Shown: positions 1 to 11,849 of the stretch, piece by piece | How the letters are laid out: each line of letters starts with the position of its first letter | Numbering within the stretch: position 1 is the stretch's first letter | NCBI GenBank assembly: GCA_902796705.1 | Contig: CADBQF010000241.1 | Span: 1 to 14,137, forward strand | Source: Ruminococcus flavefaciens | GTDB lineage: Bacteria; Bacillota; Clostridia; Oscillospirales; Ruminococcaceae | DNA: 14,137 bases | Direction: 5' to 3' | The notes under the pieces: generated by a model | The model's input: only the letters and a program-made list of their open reading frames with translations | Databases searched by the model: none | Told to the model about the DNA's origin: nothing | Position numbers and translations under genes: made by a program

Positions 1-202
1 ATACAAGTGCCTTACCTGCTTTGCCTGCGTTGAAAGATGCCCAAGAGGCGTTGAACCTGCAAAGGTAGTTGAGGCTGTACGTCTTGCGGCAGTTCGTCAG
101 CAGGGCGGGAACCGTCTTACCCCCGACATGATACCTGATATGCTCGATGACGATCTGCCGCAGCAGGCTATCGTTACGGCTCTCAGGAAGTACGCTAAGT
201 AA
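1..202 (+). CDS. hdrC: HdrC-like [4Fe-4S] subunit, 3' end only
   Basis: Partial gene: the reading frame is open from base 2 to the TAA at 200-202 and its start lies upstream of the window, leaving about 66 codons. Its beginning reads YKCLTCFACVERCPRGVEPA, a CxxCxxCxxxCP cluster-binding motif followed by RGVEPAKVVEAVR, which matches the second [4Fe-4S] site and following helix of heterodisulfide reductase subunit C. HdrC passes electrons between the HdrA flavoprotein and the HdrB active-site subunit. The gene ends 14 nt before hdrA and is co-directional, so it is in the same operon. Since hdrC directly precedes hdrA, any hdrB would have to be further upstream, out of view. Another di-cluster ferredoxin protein is possible given the short fragment. 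Confidence 0.75.
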   Translation, partial: YKCLTCFACVERCPRGVEPAKVVEAVRLAAVRQQGGNRLTPDMIPDMLDDDLPQQAIVTALRKYAK

Positions 203-216
203 GGAGGAGCGCAAGA

Positions 217-2208
217 ATGCAGAGAATAGGTGTGTTTGTCTGTCACTGCGGTACGAATATCGCTGCGACCGTCGATGTAAAGGCTGTTGCAGAGGCACTC
301 GGCCATGAGCCGGGCGTTGTTATCTCGCAGGACTACCAGTATATGTGCTCCGAATCCGGACAGAACCTCGTCAAGAACGCCATAAAGGAGCATAAGCTCA
401 CAGGTATCGTTATCTGCTCGTGCTCACCGCGTATGCACGAGAATACATTCAGAAAAGCTGCCGCTGCCGCCGGACTTAATCCTTATCTCGTTGAGATAGC
501 CAATATCCGCGAGCAGTGCTCATGGATACATAAGGATATCGCTACAGCTACCGAAAAGGCTGTTATCCTCGGCAGAGCCGCTGTTGCAAAGGTACACCTC
601 AATGCACCGCTCACAGCCGGTGAGAGCCCTGTGGTAAAGAGAGCCCTCGTTATCGGCGGAGGCATTGCCGGTATACAGACTGCCCTCGATATCGCTGAGG
701 CAGGCTTCGATGTTGACATCGTTGAGAAGAAGCCAACTATCGGCGGCAAAATGGCTCAGATAGACAAGACCTTCCCGACGCTCGACTGTGCCGCCTGTAT
801 CCTTACTCCTAAAATGGTCGAGGCTTCACAGAATGAGCATATCACGATACACTCTTTCAGTGAGGTCACAGAGGTCAAGGGCTTCGTCGGAAACTTCACA
901 GTCAAGATAAAGAAGAAGGCTCGTTTTGTTGACGAGACTAAGTGTACCGGCTGCGGACTCTGCACAGAGAAATGTCCGATGAAGAAGGTACCCAACGAGT
1001 TCAACATGGGTCTTGACAACAGGAGCGCTGTTTATATCCCGTTCGCACAGGCTGTCCCGAAGGTAGCTACTATCGATCCGAATTACTGCATGATGCTGAA
1101 AAACGGCAAGTGCGGCGTCTGCTCAAAGGTCTGCTCAGTGGGAGCTATCGACTACAAGCAGCAGGACAGATTCATCGAGGAAAAATATGGTGCTATCGTC
1201 GTAGCAACAGGATTCAATCCGATAAAACTCGACAAGTATGATGAATTCGCATACAGCCAGAGTCCTGACGTTGTGACATCTCTCGAACTCGAAAGACTCA
1301 TGAACGCAGCAGGCCCGAACGGGGGAACGCTTCTCCGTCCGTCCGACAAGACTCACCCGCACACTATCGTATTCGTACAGTGCGTAGGTTCAAGATGCGA
1401 CGATTCAAAGGGCAAGCCGTATTGTTCTAAGATATGCTGTATGTATACCGCAAAGCACGCAATGCTCATTCGTGAGAAATATCCGGATACAGAGGTATAT
1501 GTATTCTATATAGATGTACGTACTCCCGGCAAGAACTTCGACGAGTTCTACCGCCGTGCAGTTGAACAGTACAACGTTCACTATATCAAGGGCATGGTCG
1601 GAAAGGTAACGCCTCAGTCCGACGGAAAGCTCAAAGTACAGGCTTCTGATCTTCTTGCAAACAAACAGCTCCGCATCGATGCTGATATGGTCGTTCTTGC
1701 AGCAGCTATCGAGCCTGACAAGACAGCACGTCCGCTCGCAACGATGCTCACAACTCAGATGGATACGAACGATTTCTTCACAGAGGCTCACCCGAAGCTC
1801 CGTCCTGTAGAGAGTGCTACAGCAGGTATATTCCTCTCAGGTGCTTGTCAGGGCCCGAAGGATATCCCGGAGACAGTTGCTCAGGCAAGTGCCGCAGCAG
1901 CAAAGGCTATCGGACTCCTCTGCAAGAACAGTATCACCTGTAACCCGTGTGTCGCTCATTCAGACGAACTCATGTGCAACGGCTGCTCGTCATGTGAAAA
2001 GGTTTGTCCTTACGGAGCTATCACCTACATCGATAAGGAATTCAGGATGCCTGACCGTACAACAAAGGTACGCAGAGTCGCAAGTGTCAATCCTGCTGTT
2101 TGTCAGGGCTGCGGTGCTTGTACAGTAGCCTGCCCGTCAGGAGCAATGGATCTCAACGGATTCTCTAACAGTCAGATCATGGCGGAGGTAGATGCAATAT
2201 GCCGATAA
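217..2208 (+). CDS. hdrA: HdrA-like electron-bifurcating flavoprotein
   Basis: 663 residues, the usual length for HdrA, the FAD subunit at which flavin-based electron bifurcation takes place in cytoplasmic Hdr complexes. An N-terminal domain carries CHCGTNI (about residue 9). A dinucleotide-binding GGGIAG is at 147-152 and the HdrA hallmark TLDCAACILTPKM follows. Cysteine clusters are at C243/246/249/253, C291/299/302/306, a QCVGSR region from C389, and two C-terminal ferredoxin-type sites at C587/590/593/597 and C629/632/635/639, the latter pair being the expected route to ferredoxin. The ATG at 217 has a strong AAGGAGGAG 7 nt upstream, right after the hdrC stop. The stop overlaps the next start by 10 nt. 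The sequence shows the family; the bifurcation role is known for methanogen HdrA and proposed for bacterial Flx-Hdr. The low-potential product here is presumably reduced ferredoxin. Confidence 0.95.
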   Translation: MQRIGVFVCHCGTNIAATVDVKAVAEALGHEPGVVISQDYQYMCSESGQNLVKNAIKEHKLTGIVICSCSPRMHENTFRKAAAAAGLNPYLVEIANIREQCSWIHKDIATATEKAVILGRAAVAKVHLNAPLTAGESPVVKRALVIGGGIAGIQTALDIAEAGFDVDIVEKKPTIGGKMAQIDKTFPTLDCAACILTPKMVEASQNEHITIHSFSEVTEVKGFVGNFTVKIKKKARFVDETKCTGCGLCTEKCPMKKVPNEFNMGLDNRSAVYIPFAQAVPKVATIDPNYCMMLKNGKCGVCSKVCSVGAIDYKQQDRFIEEKYGAIVVATGFNPIKLDKYDEFAYSQSPDVVTSLELERLMNAAGPNGGTLLRPSDKTHPHTIVFVQCVGSRCDDSKGKPYCSKICCMYTAKHAMLIREKYPDTEVYVFYIDVRTPGKNFDEFYRRAVEQYNVHYIKGMVGKVTPQSDGKLKVQASDLLANKQLRIDADMVVLAAAIEPDKTARPLATMLTTQMDTNDFFTEAHPKLRPVESATAGIFLSGACQGPKDIPETVAQASAAAAKAIGLLCKNSITCNPCVAHSDELMCNGCSSCEKVCPYGAITYIDKEFRMPDRTTKVRRVASVNPAVCQGCGACTVACPSGAMDLNGFSNSQIMAEVDAICR

Positions 2209-2645
2209 ATGATAATAAAGATTTTCAGCCGCTGATCGTTGCATTCTGCTGCAACTGGTGTTCGTATGCAGGTGCGGATCTCTCCGGCACAAACAGACTC
2301 AATTATCCTACTAACGTAAAGATAATCAGAGTACCCTGCTCATGCAGAGTAAACCCGATGTTCATACTCCGTGCATTCCAGAGGGGAGCAGACGGAGTCA
2401 TACTCTGCGGCTGCCACCCCGGTGACTGCCACTATACATCAGGCAACTACTTCACAAGAAGAAGAATGACTCTCCTTTTCAGTATGCTCGACTATCTCGG
2501 TATAGAGCGTGACAGAACAAGAGTAGAGTGGGTATCAGCAGCAGAAGGTGCAAAATTCGCTGCTACCATGAATGAATTCACCGAAGCTGTGAGAAAACTC
2601 GGCCCTAACCGCAGATTGGAGGATCTAAGATGCAGGAAGCAATGA
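2199..2645 (+). CDS. mvhD: MvhD/FlxD-type [2Fe-2S] adaptor subunit
   Basis: 148 residues. The family signature is clear: CCNWCSYAGADLSGTNRL (17-34), YPTNVKIIRV (36-45), a conserved Cys at 47, RGADGVILCGC (62-72) and HPGDCHY (73-79). In methanogens MvhD links the hydrogenase to HdrA; in bacterial FlxABCD-HdrABC complexes the homologue FlxD links the NADH-oxidising module to HdrA. Here it lies between hdrA and the Flx-like genes, which fits the second role, since no hydrogenase gene is in view. The ATG at 2199 lies inside hdrA (10 nt overlap) with GGAGG at 2184-2188; the stop overlaps the next gene by 16 nt, so translational coupling is likely. One small departure from the sequences I remember is CSCRVNP (47-53), where CSGRVDP is common. 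Confidence 0.93.
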   Translation: MPINDNKDFQPLIVAFCCNWCSYAGADLSGTNRLNYPTNVKIIRVPCSCRVNPMFILRAFQRGADGVILCGCHPGDCHYTSGNYFTRRRMTLLFSMLDYLGIERDRTRVEWVSAAEGAKFAATMNEFTEAVRKLGPNRRLEDLRCRKQ

Positions 2646-3601
2646 TCGAAAAAGCAAAACAGCTCCTTGCTGACGGCACTGTAAACCGTGTCATCGGCTG
2701 GAAAAGAGGAGAGTTCGCATATGATATAACTCCGGCTGTATTCAGGAATGCGGAAGAACTCGAAGCTGACTTCGTGTATGACGATTTCACCGCTGCGAAC
2801 GTATCAAAGTATCTCGTAAAGGAAAGTGCCAAAGAAGGAAAGATACTTGCTTTCCTCAAGCCATGCGATACTTACAGTTTCAATCAGCTCACAAAGGAAC
2901 ACAGAGTCGTTCGTGACAACGTGTATATAGTCGGTATCCCCAGCGAAGGAAAGCTCGATATAGAGAAGATAAAGGCAAAGGGCATCAGCGGCGTGCTTTC
3001 AGTTGAGAGAGACGGCGATACCCTTAAAATAGAGACTGTATACGGCACAGAGACTATGCCCGTATCAGAAGCTATAAGCACAAAGTGCCTTAGCTGCAAG
3101 AGCAAAAAGCACGTCGTATATGATGAGCTTATAGGCGAGGACGGAGATGTCATCGCTTCTGACCGCTTCGATATGGTTGAGAAGCTCGAAAATATGACTG
3201 CTAAGGAAAGATATGAATTCTGGAGAGAGCAGCTCTCAAAGTGCATCAGATGCAATGCGTGCAGAAATGTCTGTCCTGCCTGCACTTGTGAGAAGTGCGT
3301 ATTCGATAACCCGAATTCAGGCGTTGAGAACAAGGCCGCATCAGACAGCTTCGAGGAGAATATGTTCCATATAATCCGTGCATTCCACGTAGCAGGAAGA
3401 TGTACGGACTGCGGCGAATGTTCAAGAGTCTGCCCCCAGAATATCCCGCTCCACCTCCTCAACAGAAAGTTCATCAAGGATATCAACTCACTTTACGGAG
3501 AGTATCAGGCAGGAGAGGATACAACTTCAAAAGCTCCTCTTACAAACTATACATTCGATGACTGCGAAGCAAGCATCGTTCACGAAAGGGGAGTTGAGTA
3601 A
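2630..3601 (+). CDS. AsrA-like di-[4Fe-4S] protein (FlxB/FlxC-like), copy 1
   Basis: 323 residues, soluble, no membrane segments. Residues 72-90 carry KPCDTYSFNQL, the counterpart of the G-x-R-x-CD signature of the AsrA / sulfhydrogenase-beta-like family. C153 and C156 form a CxxC. The C-terminal half holds two ferredoxin sites: C205/208/211/215, followed by the extra cysteines C218, C220 and C223, and C258/261/264/268. Such proteins pass electrons between a flavin NAD(P)H subunit and a partner. In Desulfovibrio FlxABCD two proteins of this kind, FlxB and FlxC, connect FlxA to FlxD; I cannot say which of the two this one matches. It overlaps mvhD by 16 nt, and GGAGG at 2618-2622 sets the ATG at 2630. 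Its stop TAA shares one base with the next ATG (TAATG). Confidence 0.82.
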   Translation: MQEAMIEKAKQLLADGTVNRVIGWKRGEFAYDITPAVFRNAEELEADFVYDDFTAANVSKYLVKESAKEGKILAFLKPCDTYSFNQLTKEHRVVRDNVYIVGIPSEGKLDIEKIKAKGISGVLSVERDGDTLKIETVYGTETMPVSEAISTKCLSCKSKKHVVYDELIGEDGDVIASDRFDMVEKLENMTAKERYEFWREQLSKCIRCNACRNVCPACTCEKCVFDNPNSGVENKAASDSFEENMFHIIRAFHVAGRCTDCGECSRVCPQNIPLHLLNRKFIKDINSLYGEYQAGEDTTSKAPLTNYTFDDCEASIVHERGVE

Positions 3602-4620
3602 TGCTTAAAATATCACTTGAAAAGCTCGATGATCTTTTTGCTGCCATATCAGCAAAGCAGACGCTCTATATCCCGTCTGACCGTGCTGACGGTGCTTCTG
3701 AATACAAGAAGTATGAAGCAGGCATGAAGCTCAGCAATAACCTCAATACAGTCCGCAGTGCAAAGGATTTCTTCTTCCCTCAGACTGAAAACCTCGTCGA
3801 TTTCAAAATGGAGGGAAAGAACATCGAGGTCATCGATATCCGCAAAGAGGCGGAAGATTTCGTAGTATTCGGCGTTCGTGCGTGCGATGCGAGAAGCTTT
3901 ACGATCCTTGACAAAGTTTTCCTCTGCGATCCTGTAGACAGCTACTACAAGAACCGCCGTGACCACGGAACGGTCGTAACAATGGCCTGCACACGTCCGG
4001 CAGAGACCTGTTTCTGCGGAACGTTCGGCATCGATGCAACAGCACCGGAGGGAGACTGTGCTTGTTTCTCTGACGGAGAATCACTCTTCTTCAAGGCAAA
4101 CAACGAAAAGGGACAGGCATTCATCGACTCTGTGGCTTCACTTCTCGAAGAGGGTGACACAGCAAAGCTCGACGAAGTTCAGGCAAAGACAAAGGATATA
4201 CTTTCAAAGCTGCCGCTCTCAAAGCTCAGCACAGATGCTTTCGGCGGCGACAGACTTATGGAATACTTCAATTCTGACAAGTGGGGTGAGCTTTCCGAGA
4301 GCTGCCTCGGCTGCGGTACGTGTACGTTCGTATGCCCGACCTGTCAGTGCTATGATATAAAGGATTTCAACACCGGTAACGGCATAAAGCGTTTCCGCTG
4401 CTGGGATTCGTGTATGTATTCAGACTTTACAAAAATGGCACACGGAAATCCGAGACTTACACAGCTCGAACGTTTCCGCCAGAGATTCATGCACAAGCTC
4501 GTGTACTTCCCGGCTAACAACAACGGCGAATTCGGCTGCGTAGGCTGCGGAAGATGTCTCTCGAAGTGTCCGATATCTATGAATATCGTCAAGGTTATGA
4601 AAGCACTGGAGGTAAAGTGA
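3601..4620 (+). CDS. AsrA-like di-[4Fe-4S] protein (FlxB/FlxC-like), copy 2
   Basis: 339 residues. It has the classic family motif GVRACDARSFTILDKVF at 91-107, and a second cysteine-rich patch, C130 with CFC at 137-139, resembling the CFC-containing region of AsrA-type subunits. Two C-terminal [4Fe-4S] sites are at C235/238/241/245 (followed by C248 and C250) and C313/316/319/323. It is a paralogue of the preceding gene with the same layout, but keeps the N-terminal signature better. Expected role: electron relay from the FlxA-like NADH dehydrogenase downstream towards MvhD/HdrA. A GGGGAG at 3587-3592 precedes the ATG, which overlaps the previous stop by one base; its own TGA overlaps the next ATG (TGATG). 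An anaerobic sulfite reductase is unlikely because no siroheme AsrC-type subunit is present. Confidence 0.85.
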   Translation: MLKISLEKLDDLFAAISAKQTLYIPSDRADGASEYKKYEAGMKLSNNLNTVRSAKDFFFPQTENLVDFKMEGKNIEVIDIRKEAEDFVVFGVRACDARSFTILDKVFLCDPVDSYYKNRRDHGTVVTMACTRPAETCFCGTFGIDATAPEGDCACFSDGESLFFKANNEKGQAFIDSVASLLEEGDTAKLDEVQAKTKDILSKLPLSKLSTDAFGGDRLMEYFNSDKWGELSESCLGCGTCTFVCPTCQCYDIKDFNTGNGIKRFRCWDSCMYSDFTKMAHGNPRLTQLERFRQRFMHKLVYFPANNNGEFGCVGCGRCLSKCPISMNIVKVMKALEVK

Positions 4621-5450
4621 TGAACAGTATAGATACATTGATACCGCACGTCGGAGTCGTTACTGATATCAGGATAGATACTCCCGATGTAAAGACGTTC
4701 AGAGTCGTATCTCCGGAAGGCGGCAAGGTGTTCGAGCATATGCCCGGACAGTGTGCTATGCTTTCGATACCCGGAGTAGGTGAGGGTATGTTCTCGATAA
4801 CTTCCTCCCCGACAAACAAGGAATTCATGGAATTCAGCATAAAGAAATGCGGCTGCCTCACATCATGGCTCCACGCAATGGACGTAGGACAGCAGATAAC
4901 GATAAGAGGACCTTACGGAAACCACTTCCCGGTAGAGACTGAACTCAAGGGAAAAGACCTCCTCTTCATCGCCGGAGGAATCGGACTTGCTCCGCTCCGT
5001 TCGGTTATCAACTATGTCCGTGACAAGCGTGAGAATTACGGAGATGTACAGATAGTTTACGGTTCACGTTCAAAGGACGATCTCGTTGACTACAAGGAGA
5101 TCATCGATGAGTGGATGAACGACAAGGGCGTTGAGGTGGACCTCACTATCGACAACCCGCAGGAGGGCTGGGACGGCCACGTAGGATTCGTTCCGAACTA
5201 TGTAAAGGAACTCCAGCCGTCGCTCAATAAGACTGTCCTCATATGCGGACCGCCGATCATGATAAAGTTCACGCTCGCAGGTCTGAAGGAACTCGGATTT
5301 ACCGAAACACAGGTCTATACCACTATGGAGCTTCGCATGAAGTGTGCAGTGGGAAAATGCGGAAGATGCAATATCGGCAATAAGTACGTATGCAAGGACG
5401 GCCCGGTATTCCGTTTCGATCAGCTGGGCGAGCTGCCTGACGAATATTAA
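4620..5450 (+). CDS. flxA: FlxA/AsrB-type FAD- and NAD(P)H-binding oxidoreductase subunit
   Basis: 276 residues from the ATG at 4620. An in-frame upstream ATG at 4554 lies within the previous gene and lacks the good GGAGG found at 4608-4612, so 4620 is preferred. A ferredoxin-NADP reductase-like fold is visible: a FAD-binding barrel with MFSITSSPT (57-65), a nucleotide-binding AGGIGLAPLRS (118-128), CGPP (209-212), and a C-terminal [2Fe-2S] site with C242, C247, C250 and C258 in MKCAVGKCGRCNIG...YVCKDGPVF, as in AsrB and PyrK. The role is oxidation of NADH (or NADPH) and entry of electrons into the complex. The neighbouring AsrA-like, MvhD and HdrA genes match the Flx-Hdr set. The order differs from Desulfovibrio, where flxA comes first. 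NADH versus NADPH preference cannot be read from the sequence. Confidence 0.88.
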   Translation: MNSIDTLIPHVGVVTDIRIDTPDVKTFRVVSPEGGKVFEHMPGQCAMLSIPGVGEGMFSITSSPTNKEFMEFSIKKCGCLTSWLHAMDVGQQITIRGPYGNHFPVETELKGKDLLFIAGGIGLAPLRSVINYVRDKRENYGDVQIVYGSRSKDDLVDYKEIIDEWMNDKGVEVDLTIDNPQEGWDGHVGFVPNYVKELQPSLNKTVLICGPPIMIKFTLAGLKELGFTETQVYTTMELRMKCAVGKCGRCNIGNKYVCKDGPVFRFDQLGELPDEY

Positions 5451-5463
5451 GGAGGAGCTTAAC

Positions 5464-6147
5464 ATGGATAATATGTTGAATATATATCTGTTCGGCAAGA
5501 AGTATGAAGTGCCGGCAGGACTTACTATAATGACAGCTATGGAGTATGCCGGCTATGAGCTGGTAAGAGGCTGCGGATGCAGAAACGGTTTCTGCGGTGC
5601 TTGTGCAACTATCTACAGGATAAAGGGACATCAGGAGCTTCACGGATGTCTCGCCTGCCAGACTGAGATACAGGAAGGTATGTATGTTGCAACACTTCCT
5701 TTCTTCCCGCTTGAGAAGAAGATCTACAGCATCGAGGAGATAAAGCCCACACAGCAGATAATGATGCAGCTCTACCCGGAGATATACGCTTGTATCGGCT
5801 GCAACGCCTGTACAAAGGCTTGTACTCAGGAACTCAACGTAATGCAGTACATAGCTTACGCCCAGAGAGGCGAGTACGAGAAGTGTGCAGAAGCTTCATT
5901 CGACTGCGTAATGTGCGGCGTATGTTCATCACGCTGTCCGGCAGGCATCTCACACCCGCAGGTAGCAATGCTTGCAAGAAGACTCAACGGCAAGTACATC
6001 GCTCCGGAATGCAAGCACCTCAGCGACAGGGTAGGCGAGATCAACGAGGGTATCTTCGATGAGCAGATCGCTGACCTCATGTCAAAGGCTGTTGACAGCG
6101 TTCAGGAACTCAAGGATATGTACAATCACCGTGAGATAGAAAAGTAA
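5464..6147 (+). CDS. frdB: Fumarate reductase/succinate dehydrogenase-type iron-sulfur subunit, soluble type
   Basis: 227 residues from the ATG at 5464, which follows GGAGGAG at 5451-5457; an in-frame ATG at 5344 lies inside flxA and is disfavoured. The N-terminal domain is a plant-type [2Fe-2S] ferredoxin fold with C39, C44, C47 and C62 as probable ligands (C37 and C65 are also present). It is followed by two full CxxCxxCxxxC [4Fe-4S] sites at C110/113/116/120 and C148/151/154/158. Classical quinone-linked FrdB/SdhB carries [2Fe-2S], [4Fe-4S] and [3Fe-4S]; here the pattern implies a second [4Fe-4S] instead. That, and the lack of a membrane anchor gene, argues for a cytoplasmic electron donor to the flavoprotein encoded next. 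It lacks the HdrB-like CCG domains of methanogen TfrB. It sits 13 nt after flxA and 12 nt before frdA. Confidence 0.87.
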   Translation: MDNMLNIYLFGKKYEVPAGLTIMTAMEYAGYELVRGCGCRNGFCGACATIYRIKGHQELHGCLACQTEIQEGMYVATLPFFPLEKKIYSIEEIKPTQQIMMQLYPEIYACIGCNACTKACTQELNVMQYIAYAQRGEYEKCAEASFDCVMCGVCSSRCPAGISHPQVAMLARRLNGKYIAPECKHLSDRVGEINEGIFDEQIADLMSKAVDSVQELKDMYNHREIEK

Positions 6148-6159
6148 GGAGGAGCAGAT

Positions 6160-7764
6160 ATGTACAAGATAGATAAGCTTAACGAGCTTGCAAAGATAGT
6201 TGCAGAGCATAGAGCTGAAAATGCTGCTCTCGAACCCAGAAGAATGACTGCTGAGGAAAAGGACGAACTTCTTGCATCTTTCCACCCGGATTACAAGCAG
6301 AACGAGTTCACAGTCCTCTCCGCCGGCGTGAACAAGGGCGATAAAGTTCCCACACAGCTTGCTGATCTCTTACAGGGAAAGAGCAGGATCAAGGCTGATG
6401 ACGTTGATCTCTCAAACCCGGATTACGATACAGATGTGCTTATCATCGGAGGCGGCGGAGCAGGTGCTTCATGTGCGATCGAAGCTGACGAAGCAGGCGT
6501 AAAGGCTATGATCGTTACAAAGCTCCGTATAGGCGATGCAAATACGATGATGGCAGAAGGCGGTATACAGGCTGCTGACAAGCCGAACGATTCACCGGCT
6601 ATCCACTTCCTCGATGCTTTCGGCGGCGGCCATTTCGCTGCAAAGCCTGAACTCGTAAAGAAGCTCGTTACAAAAGCTCCTGAGGCTATCCAGTGGCTCA
6701 ACAAGCTCGGCGTAGAGTTCGACAAGGAAGCAGACGGAACTATGGTAACGACTCACGGCGGCGGTACTTCCAGAAAGAGAATGCACGCTGCAAAGGACTA
6801 TTCCGGTGCTGAGATCATGAGAACTCTCCGTGACGAGGTACTCAACAGAGGTATCCCCGTTATAGATTTCACAGCAGCAGTTGAAATAATCCTCGACGAG
6901 AACGGCAAGGCTGCCGGTGCTGTACTCATGAACATGGAGACAAAGGAACTCCTCGTTGCAAGGGCAAAGACAGTCGTTATCGCTACAGGCGGTGCCGGAA
7001 GGCTCCACTATCAGGGATTCCCGACTTCAAACCACTACGGTGCAACAGCAGACGGACTTATCCTCGGCTACAGAGTAGGTGCAAAGCTCCTTTACGCTGA
7101 TACTCTCCAGTATCACCCGACAGGAACAGGCTATCCGGAGCAGATCTTCGGAGCTCTCGTTACAGAGAAAGTGCGTTCGCTCGGAGCTAAGCTCGTAAAT
7201 ATCGACGGCGAAGTATTCATGCACCCGCTTGAGACTCGTGACGTTACAGCAGCTTCGATCATTCGTGAGTGTACAGCAAGAGGCAAAGGCATCGAGACAA
7301 ACCTCGGCAAGGCTGTATGGCTCGATACTCCTATGATCGAGTACAAGAACGGCGAGGGTACTATCGAGAAGAGGATACCTGCCATGCTGAGAATGTTCGG
7401 CAAGTACGGCATCGATATCCGCAAAGAACCTATCCTCGTTTATCCTACGCTCCACTACCAGAACGGCGGACTTGACATCACTGATGACTGTGCAACAGGT
7501 GTAGAGAACCTCTATGCAGCCGGAGAAGTTGCCGGCGGTATCCACGGCAGGAACAGACTCATGGGCAACTCGCTCCTTGACGTTATCGTATTCGGCAGAA
7601 ATGCAGGTATCTATGCTGCTGCCAAAGCTAAGGAGACAGCCGTTCCCGAAAAGCTCACACTTGACCATATAGAAAAATTCAACAAGGAACTTGCTGATGC
7701 AGGCGTTGCAGGAGAGACATTATCACCGATGCTCCTCCCGCACTACGCAAGAAAGAGCAGGTAA
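6160..7764 (+). CDS. frdA: Fumarate reductase-type flavoprotein subunit
   Basis: 534 residues. The FAD-binding GGGGAG is at 97-102. Catalytic positions known from E. coli FrdA are all matched: H319 in QYHPTG, E336 and R339 in TEKVR, R360 in TRDVTAA (proton-donor arginine), H432 in PTLHY, and R466 in HGRNRLMGNSLLD (substrate carboxylate). The histidine that binds FAD covalently in Frd/Sdh is replaced by N128 in ANTMMAEGG, so FAD should be non-covalent, as in soluble fumarate reductases, TfrA and L-aspartate oxidase. The protein is shorter than membrane FrdA (about 600 residues) at the C-terminus. Predicted reaction: fumarate to succinate with electrons from FrdB. L-aspartate oxidase is less likely since nadA/nadC are absent and frdB is adjacent. 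GGAGGAG (6148-6154) sets the start. It is the last gene before a probable terminator. Confidence 0.88.
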   Translation: MYKIDKLNELAKIVAEHRAENAALEPRRMTAEEKDELLASFHPDYKQNEFTVLSAGVNKGDKVPTQLADLLQGKSRIKADDVDLSNPDYDTDVLIIGGGGAGASCAIEADEAGVKAMIVTKLRIGDANTMMAEGGIQAADKPNDSPAIHFLDAFGGGHFAAKPELVKKLVTKAPEAIQWLNKLGVEFDKEADGTMVTTHGGGTSRKRMHAAKDYSGAEIMRTLRDEVLNRGIPVIDFTAAVEIILDENGKAAGAVLMNMETKELLVARAKTVVIATGGAGRLHYQGFPTSNHYGATADGLILGYRVGAKLLYADTLQYHPTGTGYPEQIFGALVTEKVRSLGAKLVNIDGEVFMHPLETRDVTAASIIRECTARGKGIETNLGKAVWLDTPMIEYKNGEGTIEKRIPAMLRMFGKYGIDIRKEPILVYPTLHYQNGGLDITDDCATGVENLYAAGEVAGGIHGRNRLMGNSLLDVIVFGRNAGIYAAAKAKETAVPEKLTLDHIEKFNKELADAGVAGETLSPMLLPHYARKSR

Positions 7765-7786
7765 GACATATCATAGAAATAATAAT

Positions 7787-7808
7787 GGGACGCTTTTAAC
7801 AGCGTCCC
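7787..7808 (+). terminator. Probable terminator of the Hdr-Flx-Frd operon
   Basis: GGGACGCT (7787-7794) and AGCGTCCC (7801-7808) form a perfect 8-bp stem with a 6-nt loop, 22 nt after the frdA stop. A T-rich but interrupted stretch, ending in five T at 7822-7826, follows; the U-tract is therefore weak, and partial read-through into the transporter gene is possible. Confidence 0.6.
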
Positions 7809-7824
7809 GTTAGTTATGTAATTT

Positions 7825-7854
7825 TTGATATGTAGAAAATCAGAGCCATATTTT
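7825..7854 (+). promoter_or_regulatory. Candidate sigma-70-type promoter of the transporter gene
   Basis: TTGATA (7825-7830), an 18-nt spacer and TATTTT (7849-7854) lie 42 nt before the transporter start and just behind the terminator hairpin, in the only gap (132 nt) between frdA and the transporter gene. Both boxes are imperfect and the region is AT-rich, so chance is possible. Confidence 0.4.
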
Positions 7855-7896
7855 GTGCATATCAGACAATATCTTAAAAAGGAAAAGTGATCTATC

Positions 7897-9144
7897 ATGA
7901 ATTTATTTGGTGGTGTACTGAGCGTAGAGAAAGTCACCTTTCTTATGTTCTGTGTACTTGCTATCTCAGCACTCGGTTATATCCTCGGAAGAATAACTAT
8001 CAAGGGCGTATCTCTCGGAACAGCCGGAGTATTCATCGTCTCGCTCATCTTCGGCGGAATTTTCAGCAATGAACTCAGCAATCAGCTCCTCGTCGATAAA
8101 AAGGACGAACTCGGCAATGTTGTTGAGTCGTTCACGTATATGGATTCGGCATTGAAGATAGTCGATAATATCGGACTCATACTCTTTGTTACGGCAGTAG
8201 GATTCATAGCCGGCCCGAATTTCTTCGGCAATTTAAAGAAGAACTTCAAATCATACGTAGTTCTTGCAGTAATAATAATCTTCAGCGGCGGACTTGCCTG
8301 TGCGGGCTGCATACTCGTTGGAAGAAACTTTTCAGACCGTACACCATCAGAGTTTGCAGCGATCATGTCAGGTATCCTCTCAGGTGCTTTGACAAGTACA
8401 CCGGGATTCTCCGCAGCAAAAGATGCAGCCGGCCCGGAGCTTGAATCGCTCGTTACGGTCGGATACGGTATCGCCTATATATTCGGCGTTATCGGAGTCG
8501 TTCTCTTCGTTCAGCTCATTCCTAAGATCACAAAGGCTGACATGGAGAAGGAAAGAAAGCTCATAATGGGCAATGACAGCAAAAAGAAGAACGCTGCCGA
8601 CGGAACAAAACTTATCAATATGGACGACTTCGGAATAATGCCTTTTGCTTTTGCAGCAGTTGTCGGAATAATCATCGGTTCGTTCAAGTTCGGTATGTTC
8701 TCGCTTTCGATAACAGGCGGCTGCCTGCTCGTTTCACTCGTTCTCGGTCACTTCGGTCATATCGGCAAGATAAATCTCATGCCGAAAGATACTACACTTA
8801 AAGTATTCAGAGAACTCGGACTCATGTTCTTCCTCATCGGTGCAGGTATCTCCGGCGGAGCTAAGTTCAGGGCGAATTTCGAGGCTATCTACTTTGTATA
8901 CGGCATGATAATGACTATCGTTCCAATGATAATCGGCTACCTCTTCGCAAAGTATGTTCTGAAACTCAGTCTCCTCAACAATCTCGGCTCTATCACAGGC
9001 GGAATGACCTCTACTCCGGCTCTCGGAACACTTATCAGCACAGCAGGTACAGAAGATGTCGCCTCTGCATACGCTTCAACATACCCTATCGCCCTCATCT
9101 CCGTAGTCCTCGTATCCCAATTCCTGCTGATGATATTCAAATAA
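7897..9144 (+). CDS. AspT/YidE/YbjL-type (AAEx family) transporter lacking TrkA-C domains, possible succinate exporter
   Basis: 415 residues, strongly hydrophobic, with two repeated membrane halves. The family repeat appears twice: GLILFVTAVGFIAGPNFF (93-110) matches GLMFFLIGAGISGGAKF (308-324), and GALTSTPGFSAA (163-174) matches GGMTSTPALGTL (368-379). These are the hallmarks of the aspartate:alanine exchanger family. Members such as E. coli YidE are about 550 residues and carry two TrkA-C domains between the halves; here only a short charged linker (about 211-245) is present. The substrate cannot be read from sequence. C. glutamicum SucE, a succinate exporter, belongs to this family, so with frdA just upstream succinate or another dicarboxylate is the natural guess. 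The ribosome binding site is poor (AAAGGA about 13 nt before the ATG). It converges on the GH9 gene. Confidence 0.8.
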   Translation: MNLFGGVLSVEKVTFLMFCVLAISALGYILGRITIKGVSLGTAGVFIVSLIFGGIFSNELSNQLLVDKKDELGNVVESFTYMDSALKIVDNIGLILFVTAVGFIAGPNFFGNLKKNFKSYVVLAVIIIFSGGLACAGCILVGRNFSDRTPSEFAAIMSGILSGALTSTPGFSAAKDAAGPELESLVTVGYGIAYIFGVIGVVLFVQLIPKITKADMEKERKLIMGNDSKKKNAADGTKLINMDDFGIMPFAFAAVVGIIIGSFKFGMFSLSITGGCLLVSLVLGHFGHIGKINLMPKDTTLKVFRELGLMFFLIGAGISGGAKFRANFEAIYFVYGMIMTIVPMIIGYLFAKYVLKLSLLNNLGSITGGMTSTPALGTLISTAGTEDVASAYASTYPIALISVVLVSQFLLMIFK

Positions 9145-9146
9145 AC

Positions 9147-9256
9147 ATTATGGTCGGTACTCATAGTTAGGCACAGACCTATTGTGGGGGAAACCCTTTT
9201 TCAAAAGGGTTTCCCTCATAATAGGTGTATGCTTAACTATAAATACCGACCATAAT
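9147..9256. repeat. 110-bp near-perfect palindrome between convergent genes
   Basis: The outer arms ATTATGGTCGGTA (9147-9159) and TACCGACCATAAT (9244-9256) are perfect 13-bp inverted repeats. Inside, ATAGTTA (9163-9169) pairs with TAACTAT (9234-9240), ACCTATT (9177-9183) with AATAGGT (9220-9226), and the core GGGAAACCCTTTT (9188-9200) with AAAAGGGTTTCCC (9203-9215). Only a few mismatches and G-U pairs interrupt the whole. It starts 3 nt after the transporter stop and ends 16 nt before the GH9 stop on the other strand, so it probably ends transcription in both directions. The outer ends can be read as TA-flanked terminal inverted repeats of a small MITE-like element. No coding sequence fits inside. 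Confidence 0.85.
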
Positions 9257-9272
9257 TATCAGTTTGAACAGA

Positions 9273-11849
9273 TCAGCCGGCTAAGGACTGGATCTTTGCG
9301 GAAGTTGTCGGGAGGTCTGTTGTTTTGAGTGATTTAGCTTCGATCATCTGGATAGCGAGAGCATCGGTAGGTGTAACGCCCTTGGGGTTGTCAACGCAGT
9401 CAGCGTTAGCGATGCCTTCTTTTGTGAGAGTATACTTCTCAGGGTTAGCCTGGTTCTGCATTATGAGAACGGCATCAGAGATATCTACTGTCTTATCGCA
9501 GTTAGCATCGCCGTAGAGGACATCGGAAGTTTTATCCTCGCCGGTAGAAGGCTGTGAAGTTGTCGGCTCTTCAGTTGCCGGAACAGAACCGTCAGGCTCG
9601 ATACCGCCGATGAGAGTATCTCCGCTGTAAACGCAGATATTATCGGTCTTTACTTCTGTACCTGTAGCGAAGAACGCATCGTCGTCCTTGTACATTGTGA
9701 GTCCGTTATAGCTCCAGTCGTCGGAAGGCACCCATGAATCACCGTAGTAAAGACCAACAGTGAACTGATACTTCTTGCCGGAGTTAGCGATGTAATAGTC
9801 GCTCCACTTTATCTCGACGTAGTAAACGTCGTCCATTTTGTCGTACTTGTAAGGGCCGCTGATCTCACCGTTAGCGGGTGCAGCCTCAGTTGCAGCCTGA
9901 TCGTAAAGCTCGGTAGCTTTTACATTATTGACATTGCTCATACCCTTAGCACTGAAATAGTAGCGTACTGAAAGATCTTCGACTTTCTTTGTAGCACCTG
10001 TCATAACGTAAAGTGATACCTTGGTAACGCCAGCACCGTCAGCATTGAGGTCGTCGATACCGCAGGCTGTTACCCAGAAAGCGTTGCTTCCGCCGCCGCC
10101 TTCTTCGGAGTTGAATGTAGGCTTCGGAGGGAAGTTGCTTGTAGGAGCCATTTCGGGAGTGCCGTAGAACTCATAGAGACCTGCGGAAGCTCCGACGAAT
10201 GCAGCATTGTAGTCGATAGTAACTTCGTTGTAAGTCCAGTTCTTTGTTATATCGTCGTGTCTGTCCAGATTGTCAGGGCCGCCTGCGAGAGCTCCGAAGA
10301 GAACGTATCTCTGCGGATCGGGATCTTCACACTTTGTAAGGCCGGAGCTTGCTCTGTGGTGCGGATAAGCAGCGGAATTCTCGTTATATCCGACGATAAA
10401 GCATCTGCTGCCGTGGAGTTCATCTTCTGACCACGGAGCGGGTTCGCCCTTCTTTTCAGCTTCGGTATTGGCATTTATACGCTCAAGGTAAGTGATGTCG
10501 TTTTTGCCCATGATGTATTCCATCTGTCCCTTAGCCCAGTCGCTGTACTTTCCGGGAGTATTTCCGTTGTACTTTGTATAAACGAGAGCCATGAGCTGGG
10601 CAGCGGTATTGTATCTTGCACTGCCCCATGTATCGAGCCACCAGTAACCCTGCGGAGTGATCTTGCCGACGCCGCCTGTCATGTAAGTATTGATAGCCTT
10701 CTCAACGGAAGCCCAGCAGTTCATTTCCTCATAGGGGCTCTTGTTGGCAGCTTTCTTGAATTCTTCGATGAAATCAGGGTAAACGTGTTCGCCTTCCTTG
10801 GCAGGCTTATCCATGCAGATCTCACCGAGAACGCACTGTACGCCGCCCCAAACGTCGTTCCAGCAGTGAACGTAGCAGGGAGCTGCATAGTAGTCGTAGT
10901 TGGGGTAGATCTCTTCGAGGTACATATGGTCGCCGGTTATCTTGTAGAGCCATGCAGCAGCCCAGCAGTAATCGTCTTCCCATTTGCCTGATCTGTAGTA
11001 ACCCTTCGGGCCGTCGCCGTTGTCGGAGAGCTCCTTGGGGTGATCCTTTGCGAACTTGAAGAGAGCCTCTGCGTAGTCAAGGTTTTTCTGAGCGTATTCC
11101 GGATCAGTATCCTTGAAGTTGAGGTAGTTTATAGCGAGAGATGCGGCAGCGGAAACGCAGTAGTCAGTCTGCGGCTTTTCAGGTGTGAGGAAGAAAGCCG
11201 GTCTGCCCATAGTGTCCATTTCCGGAGAATTCCAGTAATTGTGATCCTCGTCGCCGTCGCCCACCTGATAGCAGTGGAGTACAACGTCGCCGTTCTCGTC
11301 AAGGAAAGTACACTTCATGAGATAGTCATTGAAGTGACGGAGGATAGTCTCGATATGCTCCTGCTCACCGATCTTTATATAAGAATCACGGAATTCGTAG
11401 TAGCCCCAGCCGACAGTAGAAGCGGCATAGTTCTCCGGCATACCGAATTCAACGTGGTCGCCGGCATCGTGGAAACCGCCTGCAACGTCAACGCAGCCGT
11501 CGCCGTCCGGATCAAGGATATCACGGTACTTTTCAATCTGTTCTTCTGTGAGGTTCACGCCTACCCAGTCTTCGATAGGGTGGAGCGGGACTTTTGCATC
11601 GTAAGTATGACAGTTGCCTCTCCACTCGAAGCGGTTGTTTCCTTCAACGTCAGTACCGCACATATTGGCATCGTAGAAATACATAGAATACTGTAAAGCA
11701 CGGGCGAAGTCGTATTCAACGCCTGATGAATTGGCGATCGCATCTTTCAGCTCGTCGGCAGCATTTGCAGCCGGAAGGAAAGTCAGCGTCTGAGTGAGAG
11801 CTATTGCAGCACCTGCGGCAGCAGATAGAAGCCGTTTCTTTAACTTCAT
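9273..11849 (-). CDS. Cellulosomal GH9 endoglucanase: signal peptide, GH9, CBM3-like, dockerin
   Basis: 858 residues. A Sec signal peptide (KKR, hydrophobic core, cleavage after ANA near 30) precedes a GH9 catalytic domain at about 43-570: NRFEWRG (72-78), DAGDH (128-132; D128 and D131 the catalytic base positions), PHHR (496-499), LAGGPD (521-526), and the proton donor E542 in the NEVTIDYNAAF segment. The loop between WRG and DAGDH is about 30 residues longer than in Cel9G-type enzymes and contains DPDGDG, a calcium-loop-like stretch. Residues about 588-730 resemble a CBM3 (LSVRYYF, YYVEIKW, DDWSYNG), as in processive GH9-CBM3 endoglucanases; exact CBM3 subtype is uncertain. A Thr/Ser/Pro linker (751-775) leads to a dockerin (778-858). 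Expected role: extracellular cellulose hydrolysis in a cellulosome. AGGAGG lies 8 nt before the ATG. It is second in the operon, 72 nt after the GH26 gene. Confidence 0.93.
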   Translation of the reverse strand: MKLKKRLLSAAAGAAIALTQTLTFLPAANAADELKDAIANSSGVEYDFARALQYSMYFYDANMCGTDVEGNNRFEWRGNCHTYDAKVPLHPIEDWVGVNLTEEQIEKYRDILDPDGDGCVDVAGGFHDAGDHVEFGMPENYAASTVGWGYYEFRDSYIKIGEQEHIETILRHFNDYLMKCTFLDENGDVVLHCYQVGDGDEDHNYWNSPEMDTMGRPAFFLTPEKPQTDYCVSAAASLAINYLNFKDTDPEYAQKNLDYAEALFKFAKDHPKELSDNGDGPKGYYRSGKWEDDYCWAAAWLYKITGDHMYLEEIYPNYDYYAAPCYVHCWNDVWGGVQCVLGEICMDKPAKEGEHVYPDFIEEFKKAANKSPYEEMNCWASVEKAINTYMTGGVGKITPQGYWWLDTWGSARYNTAAQLMALVYTKYNGNTPGKYSDWAKGQMEYIMGKNDITYLERINANTEAEKKGEPAPWSEDELHGSRCFIVGYNENSAAYPHHRASSGLTKCEDPDPQRYVLFGALAGGPDNLDRHDDITKNWTYNEVTIDYNAAFVGASAGLYEFYGTPEMAPTSNFPPKPTFNSEEGGGGSNAFWVTACGIDDLNADGAGVTKVSLYVMTGATKKVEDLSVRYYFSAKGMSNVNNVKATELYDQAATEAAPANGEISGPYKYDKMDDVYYVEIKWSDYYIANSGKKYQFTVGLYYGDSWVPSDDWSYNGLTMYKDDDAFFATGTEVKTDNICVYSGDTLIGGIEPDGSVPATEEPTTSQPSTGEDKTSDVLYGDANCDKTVDISDAVLIMQNQANPEKYTLTKEGIANADCVDNPKGVTPTDALAIQMIEAKSLKTTDLPTTSAKIQSLAG

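What the first reader, a model, noticed from the sequence alone, without database searches (positions are those of the whole stretch)
1..7764. Hdr-Flx operon joined to a fumarate reductase pair: candidate electron-bifurcating, NADH-dependent fumarate reductase
Seen: hdrC (3' end), hdrA, mvhD, two AsrA-like genes, flxA, frdB and frdA in one uninterrupted co-directional run with overlaps or gaps under 15 nt and no membrane anchor. Known: Flx-Hdr complexes oxidise NADH and reduce ferredoxin together with a disulfide acceptor; R. flavefaciens-type bacteria excrete succinate; fumarate/succinate (about +30 mV) is high enough to drive ferredoxin reduction from NADH. Inference: FrdAB takes the high-potential branch, so each fumarate reduced would also yield reduced ferredoxin. 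I know of no biochemical description of such a complex in Ruminococcus, but cannot search.
Basis: partly seen in the sequence, partly recalled or inferred. Interest (0 to 1): 0.88.

Follow-up and report, generated by a model that had tools for sequence, protein, structure and literature searches.

The report
NADH-driven, ferredoxin-coupled fumarate reductase operon
A rumen Ruminococcus carries one conserved gene set that very probably uses NADH to turn fumarate into succinate while banking part of the energy as reduced ferredoxin; the idea has been proposed before for another bacterium but, as far as I could find, not tested biochemically.

Summary
Window 1-7764 is one co-directional run: hdrC 3' end, hdrA, mvhD/flxD, flxC, flxB, flxA, frdB, frdA, with gaps of -16 to +14 nt and no membrane anchor. 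The contig starts inside hdrC. In 62 of 62 named relatives with at least 7.8 kb upstream, the run is hdrB-C-A-mvhD-flxC-B-A-frdB-A; 61 of 62 also carry class II fumarase. In 245 genomes of the order, FrdB and HdrA co-occur in 48 (FrdB alone 1, HdrA alone 2). In 32 such genomes no MenD, no Sdh cytochrome (both by cut-off) and no DsrC were found; RnfC is in 25. The bifurcating-fumarate-reductase reading is well supported but unproven. As an idea it is not new: an operon of the same described gene content, with the same mechanism, was proposed for Pseudoclostridium thermosuccinogenes (PMC7282089), and a related one for tubeworm symbionts (PMC6315080). Added here: its conservation in Ruminococcus and kin, a Rex gene and Rex-like operator upstream, and evidence that FrdBA is a plug-in pair found beside several different redox modules.

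The parts
2..202 (+). hdrC, 3' end only (contig begins inside the gene)
   Evidence: Sequence; TIGR03290 HdrC 33.3 bits on 33 residues, below cut-off; the fragment is 52-77% identical to hdrC genes in front of hdrA in order relatives
217..2208 (+). hdrA, 663 aa, FAD and Fe-S bifurcating subunit
   Evidence: NF040770 HdrA2 804.5 bits over residues 3-661 (cut-off 1100, a model that also spans MvhD); 5odc_A 698 bits
2199..2645 (+). mvhD / flxD, 148 aa
   Evidence: PF02662 FlpD E=1.5e-55
2630..3601 (+). flxC, 323 aa, 4Fe-4S dicluster, weakly AsrA-like
   Evidence: Fer4_8 35.7 bits; AsrA 19.9 bits
3601..4620 (+). flxB, 339 aa, AsrA / sulfhydrogenase-beta-like
   Evidence: PF17179 106.7 bits; NF040829 ShyB 169.5 bits; AsrA 130.6 bits, the last two below cut-off
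4620..5450 (+). flxA, 276 aa, FAD/NAD(P)H oxidoreductase with DHODB-type Fe-S end: NADH entry point
   Evidence: PF00970, PF00175, PF10418
5464..6147 (+). frdB, 227 aa: Fer2 domain plus two four-cysteine (2x[4Fe-4S]-type) motifs
   Evidence: PF13510, PF13187; Fer2 cysteines 39, 44, 47, 65 and Fer4 cysteines 110, 113, 116, 120, 148, 151, 154, 158 in 41 of 41 sequences, the window included
6160..7764 (+). frdA, 534 aa, short soluble fumarate-reductase flavoprotein with an ~88-residue N-terminal extension
   Evidence: PF00890 244.9 bits; alignment to 1kf6/3p4p with the catalytic residues kept; AF2 model pLDDT 76.4 matches E. coli FrdA first
7787..7808 (.). hairpin between frdA and the transporter gene; its T tail is on the - strand, so it is a weak candidate for a + strand terminator
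   Evidence: 8-pair stem; the number of terminator-like sites in the region is at chance level (8 against 7.6)
7897..9144 (+). AspT/YidE-type transporter, candidate C4-dicarboxylate exporter
   Evidence: PF06826 194.2 bits, TIGR01625 134.1 bits over cut-off; a homologue follows frdA in 62 of 71 loci with enough downstream sequence

Best explanation
The operon encodes a soluble, electron-bifurcating, NADH-dependent fumarate reductase. NADH delivers a hydride to FlxA. Electrons pass through FlxB/FlxC and FlxD (MvhD) to the FAD of HdrA, which splits them. One goes down to ferredoxin. The other goes up through HdrC and the two CCG-type clusters of HdrB to FrdB, then to the FAD of FrdA, which reduces fumarate to succinate. 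Expected stoichiometry: 2 NADH + fumarate + 2 oxidised ferredoxin -> 2 NAD+ + succinate + 2 reduced ferredoxin, about -49 kJ/mol at Fd = -420 mV. The co-encoded fumarase (and in 30 of 80 relatives a probable malate dehydrogenase) feed it, the transporter probably exports succinate, and Rnf or hydrogenase reoxidises ferredoxin. Shown: gene set, conservation, catalytic residues, cluster ligands, genomic co-occurrence, absence of the tested alternatives by search. Inferred: complex formation, electron path, bifurcation, direction, the transporter's substrate.
For: HdrA aligned over its whole length with a bifurcating HdrA of known structure, NADH-type FlxA, HdrB with both CCG motifs in 63 of 63 relatives that show hdrB. 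FrdA keeps the residues aligned with E. coli FrdA His232, Glu245, Arg287, His355, Arg390 (numbers recalled) in 40 of 40 sequences with an unbroken frdA, window included. Synteny 62 of 62; fumarase 61 of 62; LDH/MDH-family gene in 30 of 80. FrdB/HdrA co-occurrence 48 of 49 and of 50 in 245 genomes. Gene set also together in two other gene orders. MenD and Sdh_cyt 0 of 32 over cut-off, DsrC 0 of 32, RnfC over cut-off in 25 of 32. Rex gene next door in 26 loci, Rex-like operator in 15 of 31 loci against 0.26 expected. Published for P. thermosuccinogenes: the operon described there rises about 4-fold under CO2 limitation, not significantly for every subunit, and the same role is proposed.
Against: No biochemistry. 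FrdBA exists without HdrA: G179 (99% complete) has FrdBA and only a 17-bit HdrA match, and G311 and G538 have none at E<=1e-40; in 10 of 20 distant loci no Hdr gene is adjacent. So FrdBA does not always need Hdr-Flx. HdrB keeps its disulfide-type clusters, so a thiol could still intervene. The window's own MAG shows no RnfC over cut-off, like 6 others of the 32. 22 of 32 genomes have sub-cut-off MenD-model matches (at most 76.5 of 244.2 bits) and 4 of 32 have futalosine-type Pfam matches at 26-37 bits, so a quinone is unlikely but not excluded. The Rex-like site is missing in 11 of the 26 rex-adjacent loci at 12 of 14. The FrdB model was too poor to use. In tubeworm symbionts tfrAB did not follow the expression of the Hdr-Flx cluster.
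Confidence: 0.72

Rival explanations
1. Simple, non-bifurcating NADH:fumarate reductase: Flx-Hdr acts as a wire and ferredoxin is not a partner.
For: The sequence cannot show bifurcation; [quoted passage not shown] paper not held).
Against: HdrA aligns with the solved bifurcating HdrA over residues 3-661. A simple NADH:fumarate enzyme would not need HdrA, HdrC and MvhD, yet these are kept in 62 of 62 loci.
Confidence: 0.13
2. Thiol-mediated: HdrB reduces or oxidises a small disulfide/thiol, and fumarate reduction runs like the methanogen thiol:fumarate reductase, not by direct HdrB-to-FrdB transfer.
For: HdrB keeps all ten CCG cysteines; FrdA's best NCBIfam score is TfrA (346 bits, below cut-off).
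Against: FrdB has no CCG-domain match; DsrC, the protein partner proposed in Desulfovibrio, was not found in 32 of 32 genomes; hdrC-hdrB-frdB-frdA alone form a cluster in three distant genomes, which points to direct contact.
Confidence: 0.09
3. Reverse (confurcating) direction: succinate oxidation to fumarate pulled by reduced ferredoxin, making NADH.
For: Bifurcating enzymes are reversible in principle (general knowledge).
Against: Co-encoded fumarase and probable malate dehydrogenase in fermenting hosts, a Rex gene and Rex-like site upstream in the Ruminococcus group, and Asn in place of the FAD-linking His in 41 of 41 FrdA, which in E. coli FrdA is needed for succinate oxidation (recalled).
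Confidence: 0.03
4. Incidental adjacency: FrdAB uses another donor and only shares a promoter.
For: FrdBA occurs without Hdr in several genomes.
Against: 62 of 62 synteny, 48 shared of 49 and 50, three gene orders.
Confidence: 0.03

Closest known systems
Pseudoclostridium thermosuccinogenes 'succinate operon' (PMC7282089; the preprint by Koendjbiharie & van Kranenburg 2019 that it cites is not held)
   Same: Fumarate hydratase, Flx-Hdr genes (locus-tag range implies seven), two fumarate reductase genes, then a hypothetical gene that may be a succinate transporter; the same proposed reaction (passages)
   Different: Different organism; the sequences were not compared here. In Ruminococcus kin there is often a malate-dehydrogenase-like gene, or rex, upstream
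FlxABCD-HdrABC of Desulfovibrio vulgaris
   Same: The same set of subunit types (names recalled and)
   Different: Its likely acceptor is DsrC (passages), not found in 32 of 32 genomes here; here FrdBA is co-encoded
flxABCD-hdrABC with tfrAB and korABCD in tubeworm symbionts (PMC6315080, PMC11636981)
   Same: Fumarate reductase genes interspersed with Flx-Hdr, complex proposed (passages)
   Different: rTCA carbon fixation, TfrAB type, extra KorABCD; tfrAB expression did not follow the cluster
Thiol:fumarate reductase TfrAB of methanogens
   Same: FrdA scores best with TfrA among NCBIfam models; HdrB-like and FrdB-like parts are fused in TfrB (recalled)
   Different: Below the TfrA cut-off (346 of 718 bits); the CCG part is a separate protein, HdrB
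Quinol:fumarate reductase (E. coli FrdABCD)
   Same: FrdA fold and catalytic residues
   Different: No anchor gene beside it, no MenD or Sdh cytochrome over cut-off in 32 genomes, no covalent-FAD His, two four-cysteine motifs in FrdB

Membership tests
FlxABCD-HdrABC (NADH dehydrogenase/heterodisulfide reductase) | HdrA, HdrC, FlxD (MvhD), FlxB, FlxC and NADH-type FlxA encoded together | tested here: met
   hdrC only as a 3' fragment in the window; no FlxB/FlxC model of their own was available
FlxABCD-HdrABC (NADH dehydrogenase/heterodisulfide reductase) | HdrB with two CCG motifs | tested here: met
   Outside the window: 63 of 63 named relatives that show hdrB; hdrB also on a co-binned contig
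FlxABCD-HdrABC (NADH dehydrogenase/heterodisulfide reductase) | DsrC as protein acceptor (the Desulfovibrio case) | tested here: not met
   PF04358: 0 of 32 genomes; concerns the acceptor, not the complex itself
FlxABCD-HdrABC (NADH dehydrogenase/heterodisulfide reductase) | NADH-dependent ferredoxin reduction coupled to a high-potential acceptor | not testable with these tools
   Needs the enzyme
Fumarate reductase / complex II flavoprotein superfamily | FAD_binding_2 fold with His, Glu, Arg, His, Arg active site | tested here: met
Quinol:fumarate reductase | Membrane anchor, quinone route, covalent-FAD His | tested here: not met
   No anchor gene; Sdh_cyt and MenD 0 of 32 over cut-off; Asn in 41 of 41; 4 of 32 futalosine-type Pfam matches at 26-37 bits left open
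Thiol:fumarate reductase TfrAB | TfrA over curated cut-off; CCG domain within TfrB | tested here: not met
   346 of 718 bits; no CCG match in FrdB
L-aspartate oxidase NadB | NadB over cut-off and Glu121 (recalled) | tested here: not met
   271 of 452.75 bits; His (38) or Phe (3) at that column in 41 sequences
'Succinate operon' of P. thermosuccinogenes | Fumarase, Flx-Hdr, Frd (2 genes), transporter-like gene in a row | tested here: met
   Gene content of relatives against the published list; sequence orthology not tested; fumarase, hdrB and most of hdrC lie outside the window

The most novel reading that the evidence does not exclude
FrdBA is a plug-in fumarate-reducing pair that evolution has coupled repeatedly to different electron suppliers (NADH-bifurcating Flx-Hdr in three gene orders, HdrABC with a second long HdrA-like protein, HdrCB alone, Fer4-cytochrome b561 membrane proteins, FMN-bind/Fer4 proteins). 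In the Ruminococcus version HdrB has become an internal relay to FrdB, so that an HdrABC machine bifurcates to a protein acceptor with no disulfide substrate at all.
Probability: 0.5. Interest if true: 0.75.

Novelty: new member of a known kind. Interest (0 to 1): 0.5.

Why it matters
If it works as proposed, succinate formation by rumen cellulose degraders such as Ruminococcus flavefaciens conserves energy: each fumarate oxidises two NADH and yields two reduced ferredoxins for Rnf (ion gradient) or hydrogenase (H2). That would change energy and hydrogen budgets for rumen fibre fermentation, help explain how these bacteria could make succinate where no MenD or Sdh-type cytochrome is found, and give the Hdr family a physiological acceptor that is neither heterodisulfide nor DsrC. 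Two named strains that carry it (R. flavefaciens FD-1 and ATCC 19208) make it directly testable.

Tried and rejected
L-aspartate oxidase reading of FrdA: rejected. Quinol-linked reading: rejected on MenD and Sdh_cyt cut-offs, with 4 of 32 futalosine-type matches left open. DsrC as acceptor: rejected. Reading a binding mode from a FrdB model: abandoned, mean pLDDT 46.6. FrdB against solved structures gave ferredoxin-domain, RnfC and SdhB matches, none over the whole protein. The hypothesis that FrdBA always needs Hdr is rejected. The FrdA N-terminal extension stayed unexplained. The promoter/terminator scan of window 1-9400 found counts near chance (15 against 10.9 and 8 against 7.6). The scan for Rex sites over all 62 loci with enough upstream sequence found 12 of 14 or better in 20, and little gain in the mean over shuffles (10.4 against 9.4); outside the Ruminococcus group most loci lack the site.
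Full report
WHAT IS THERE. The window is one whole contig (C241) of a fragmented MAG (441 contigs, 88.7% complete). Bases 1-7764 hold one co-directional run: hdrC 3' end (2-202), hdrA (217-2208), mvhD/flxD (2199-2645), flxC (2630-3601), flxB (3601-4620), flxA (4620-5450), frdB (5464-6147), frdA (6160-7764). Gaps run from -16 to +14 nt. After 132 nt with a hairpin comes an AspT/YidE-type transporter gene (7897-9144). No anchor subunit is beside it. The own genome has one FrdA hit and one FlpD hit.

UPSTREAM. The contig stops inside hdrC, so hdrB was sought elsewhere. A second contig of the same MAG (C117) matches window 1-1020 at 86% nucleotide identity, so it is probably another strain or species binned together. 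It reads isocitrate dehydrogenase (3' part), Rex, class II fumarase, hdrB, hdrC and the start of hdrA. Among these 80 named loci, all 80 have flxA-frdB-frdA in order. Of the 62 with at least 7.8 kb upstream, 62 have hdrB-hdrC-hdrA-mvhD-flxC-flxB-flxA-frdB-frdA in order on one strand and 61 also fumC (L157 lacks it). Of 71 with at least 1.3 kb downstream of frdA, 62 have the transporter. R. flavefaciens FD-1 (L108) and ATCC 19208 (L109) are among them.

MALATE BRANCH. 30 of the 80 loci also carry a gene of the lactate/malate dehydrogenase family in front of fumC. The one scanned against NCBIfam (L064, 319 aa, not among the 80) is named L-lactate dehydrogenase over the cut-off and malate dehydrogenase below it. 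The substrate loop however shows Arg in 29 of the 30, mostly as xRKPGQ(S/T)R (L172 is only a fragment), which by recalled specificity rules means malate dehydrogenase. In that reading these operons hold every step from oxaloacetate to succinate; the family models do not settle it.

IS ADJACENCY INCIDENTAL? In 245 genomes of the order, FrdB (E<=1e-10) is in 49 and HdrA (E<=1e-100) in 50, with 48 shared. FrdB alone: G179. HdrA alone: G096 (49% identical) and G142 (82% identical; its contig ends just after mvhD). Fisher's test gives 2e-47, but genomes are related and not independent. Of 20 order genomes fetched wide (20 of 48 other than our own), 18 have hdrB to frdA, L071 is cut by the contig end and L080 (G179) has frdBA without Hdr. 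G179 has only a 17-bit match to HdrA anywhere.

BEYOND THE ORDER. FrdB is in 32 of 348 phylum genomes, our own included. Of the 31 others, 20 were fetched wide. Four have the complete Flx-Hdr set: three with frdBA in front of hdrB (L086, L090, L101) and one with hdrC before hdrB (L093). Three have hdrA, hdrB, hdrC, a second long HdrA-like protein (1053-1489 aa; scanned against families only in L088) and mvhD but no flxA match (L087, L088, L100). Three have only hdrC-hdrB-frdB-frdA (L082, L091, L092). Ten have no adjacent Hdr match. Among those ten, L083 and L085 have a malic-enzyme gene next door, L094 a pyruvate carboxylase, L084 and L095 FMN-binding/Fer4 proteins, and L096 and L098 Fer4-cytochrome b561 proteins. 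In L086 the gene upstream of frdB scores best as aspartase. Of the 13 genomes in the last two classes, 11 have HdrA somewhere (E<=1e-40) and G311 and G538 do not. On a tree of FrdA+FrdB (41 rows) the Flx-Hdr-linked pairs fall in three separate places with three gene orders. L089, L094 and L095 sit on long branches, the root is a midpoint, and one origin with losses is not excluded.

ANATOMY. FrdA keeps the residues aligned with the E. coli FrdA active site (His319, Glu336, Arg339, His432, Arg466 of the window protein) in all 40 sequences with an unbroken frdA, window included; the 41st, L067, has a truncated frdA. In the 80 named loci the motifs around His319, Arg339, His432 and Arg466 are found in 74; of the 6 misses 4 are cut by the end of the locus (L139, L145, L162, L167) and 2 have a frame that stops early (L106, L156). 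The column of the covalent-FAD His is Asn in 41 of 41. E. coli residue numbers and their roles are recalled. The AF2 model of FrdA (pLDDT 76.4, pTM 0.81) matches E. coli FrdA first. FrdA ends shortly after the last catalytic motif, so it lacks the C-terminal part of FrdA/SdhA, and has about 88 extra N-terminal residues of unknown role. FrdB has a Fer2 domain and two CxxCxxCxxxC motifs (Fer4 cysteines in 41 of 41), hence probably two [4Fe-4S] and not the [3Fe-4S] of quinone-linked enzymes (recalled). HdrB keeps both CCG motifs in 63 of 63 loci that show it. HdrA aligns to 5odc_A over residues 3-661.

GENOME CONTEXT. I searched 32 operon-bearing genomes: our own plus the 31 FrdB-positive order genomes with at least 90% completeness, at most 5% contamination and an HdrA match; the other 17 of the 49 were not searched. 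RnfC is over cut-off in 25 (not in our own MAG, but in G201 of the same genus). MenD is over cut-off in 0, with sub-cut-off matches in 22 (at most 76.5 of 244.2 bits). The futalosine-type Pfam PF02621 is over its cut-off in 4, at 26-37 bits. Sdh_cyt is over cut-off in 0, with one match just below (24 of 25.8 bits). DsrC is in 0. So the acceptor proposed for Desulfovibrio Flx-Hdr was not found, a classical quinone route is unlikely, and most can use reduced ferredoxin.

REGULATION. A Rex-family gene lies upstream in 26 loci of the Ruminococcus group (71-78% identical to the C117 Rex). Of 31 loci with any Rex hit and fumC, 15 (all among the 26) have a site matching TTGTTAANNNNTTAACAA at 12 of 14 or better; 0.26 were expected from dinucleotide shuffles. 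Of the other 11 rex-adjacent loci, 3 reach 11 of 14 and 8 do not. The consensus is recalled and the loci are related, so the count overstates independence. NADH-sensing control would fit an NADH-consuming operon.

ENERGETICS. With NADH -320 mV and fumarate +33 mV (quoted in PMC5861303, passages) and Fd -420 mV (recalled), 2 NADH + fumarate + 2 Fdox -> succinate + 2 Fdred is -48.8 kJ/mol, and still -33.4 at Fd -500 mV.

LITERATURE. [quoted passage not shown] PMC6315080 and PMC11636981 (passages) propose a link of Flx-Hdr with TfrAB in tubeworm symbionts. PMC10920352 (passages) gives DsrC as the most likely second acceptor in Desulfovibrio. PMC12773636 (passages) assumes an NADH-dependent fumarate reductase in Blautia luti and has no occurrence of Hdr. 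My ten searches cover open-licence PMC papers only. They gave no paper that I recognised as describing this operon in Ruminococcus or an assay of the complex, but I saw passages of only nine papers and otherwise listings.

VERDICT. Observation confirmed, interpretation supported at about 0.7, idea already in print for another genus. New here, as far as those searches reach: the extent of conservation in Ruminococcus and relatives, the missing rival acceptors, the Rex link, and the plug-in nature of FrdBA.

Noticed in passing
window 9273-11849 (-) and 11922-13808 (-): Two large enzyme genes on the opposite strand: a GH9 glycoside hydrolase and a CBM35-GH26 protein, both ending in dockerin-like repeats (by eye, recalled motif), as in cellulosome-forming Ruminococcus.
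   Followed up: partly
L187 (G000:C117), 1-5325: The MAG also holds the start of the same operon, probably from another strain or species (86% nucleotide identity to window 1-1020): the bin looks mixed.
   Followed up: yes
L080 / L192 (G179): frdBA nested in the order's clade but without Hdr-Flx in a 99%-complete 1.2 Mb genome: donor unknown.
   Followed up: partly
L096, L098: frdBA followed by a Fer4-cytochrome b561 protein, a possible membrane-linked version of this soluble reductase.
   Followed up: no
L087, L088, L100: frdBA beside hdrA/B/C, a second long HdrA-like protein and mvhD, with no flxA match: another electron donor is likely.
   Followed up: no
window 6160-6423 (frdA residues 1-88): Conserved N-terminal extension of FrdA of unknown role; possibly a docking element.
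   Followed up: partly
L106 and L156 (frdA): The frdA reading frame stops early inside the locus in these two MAG loci; sequencing error or decay not distinguished.
   Followed up: no
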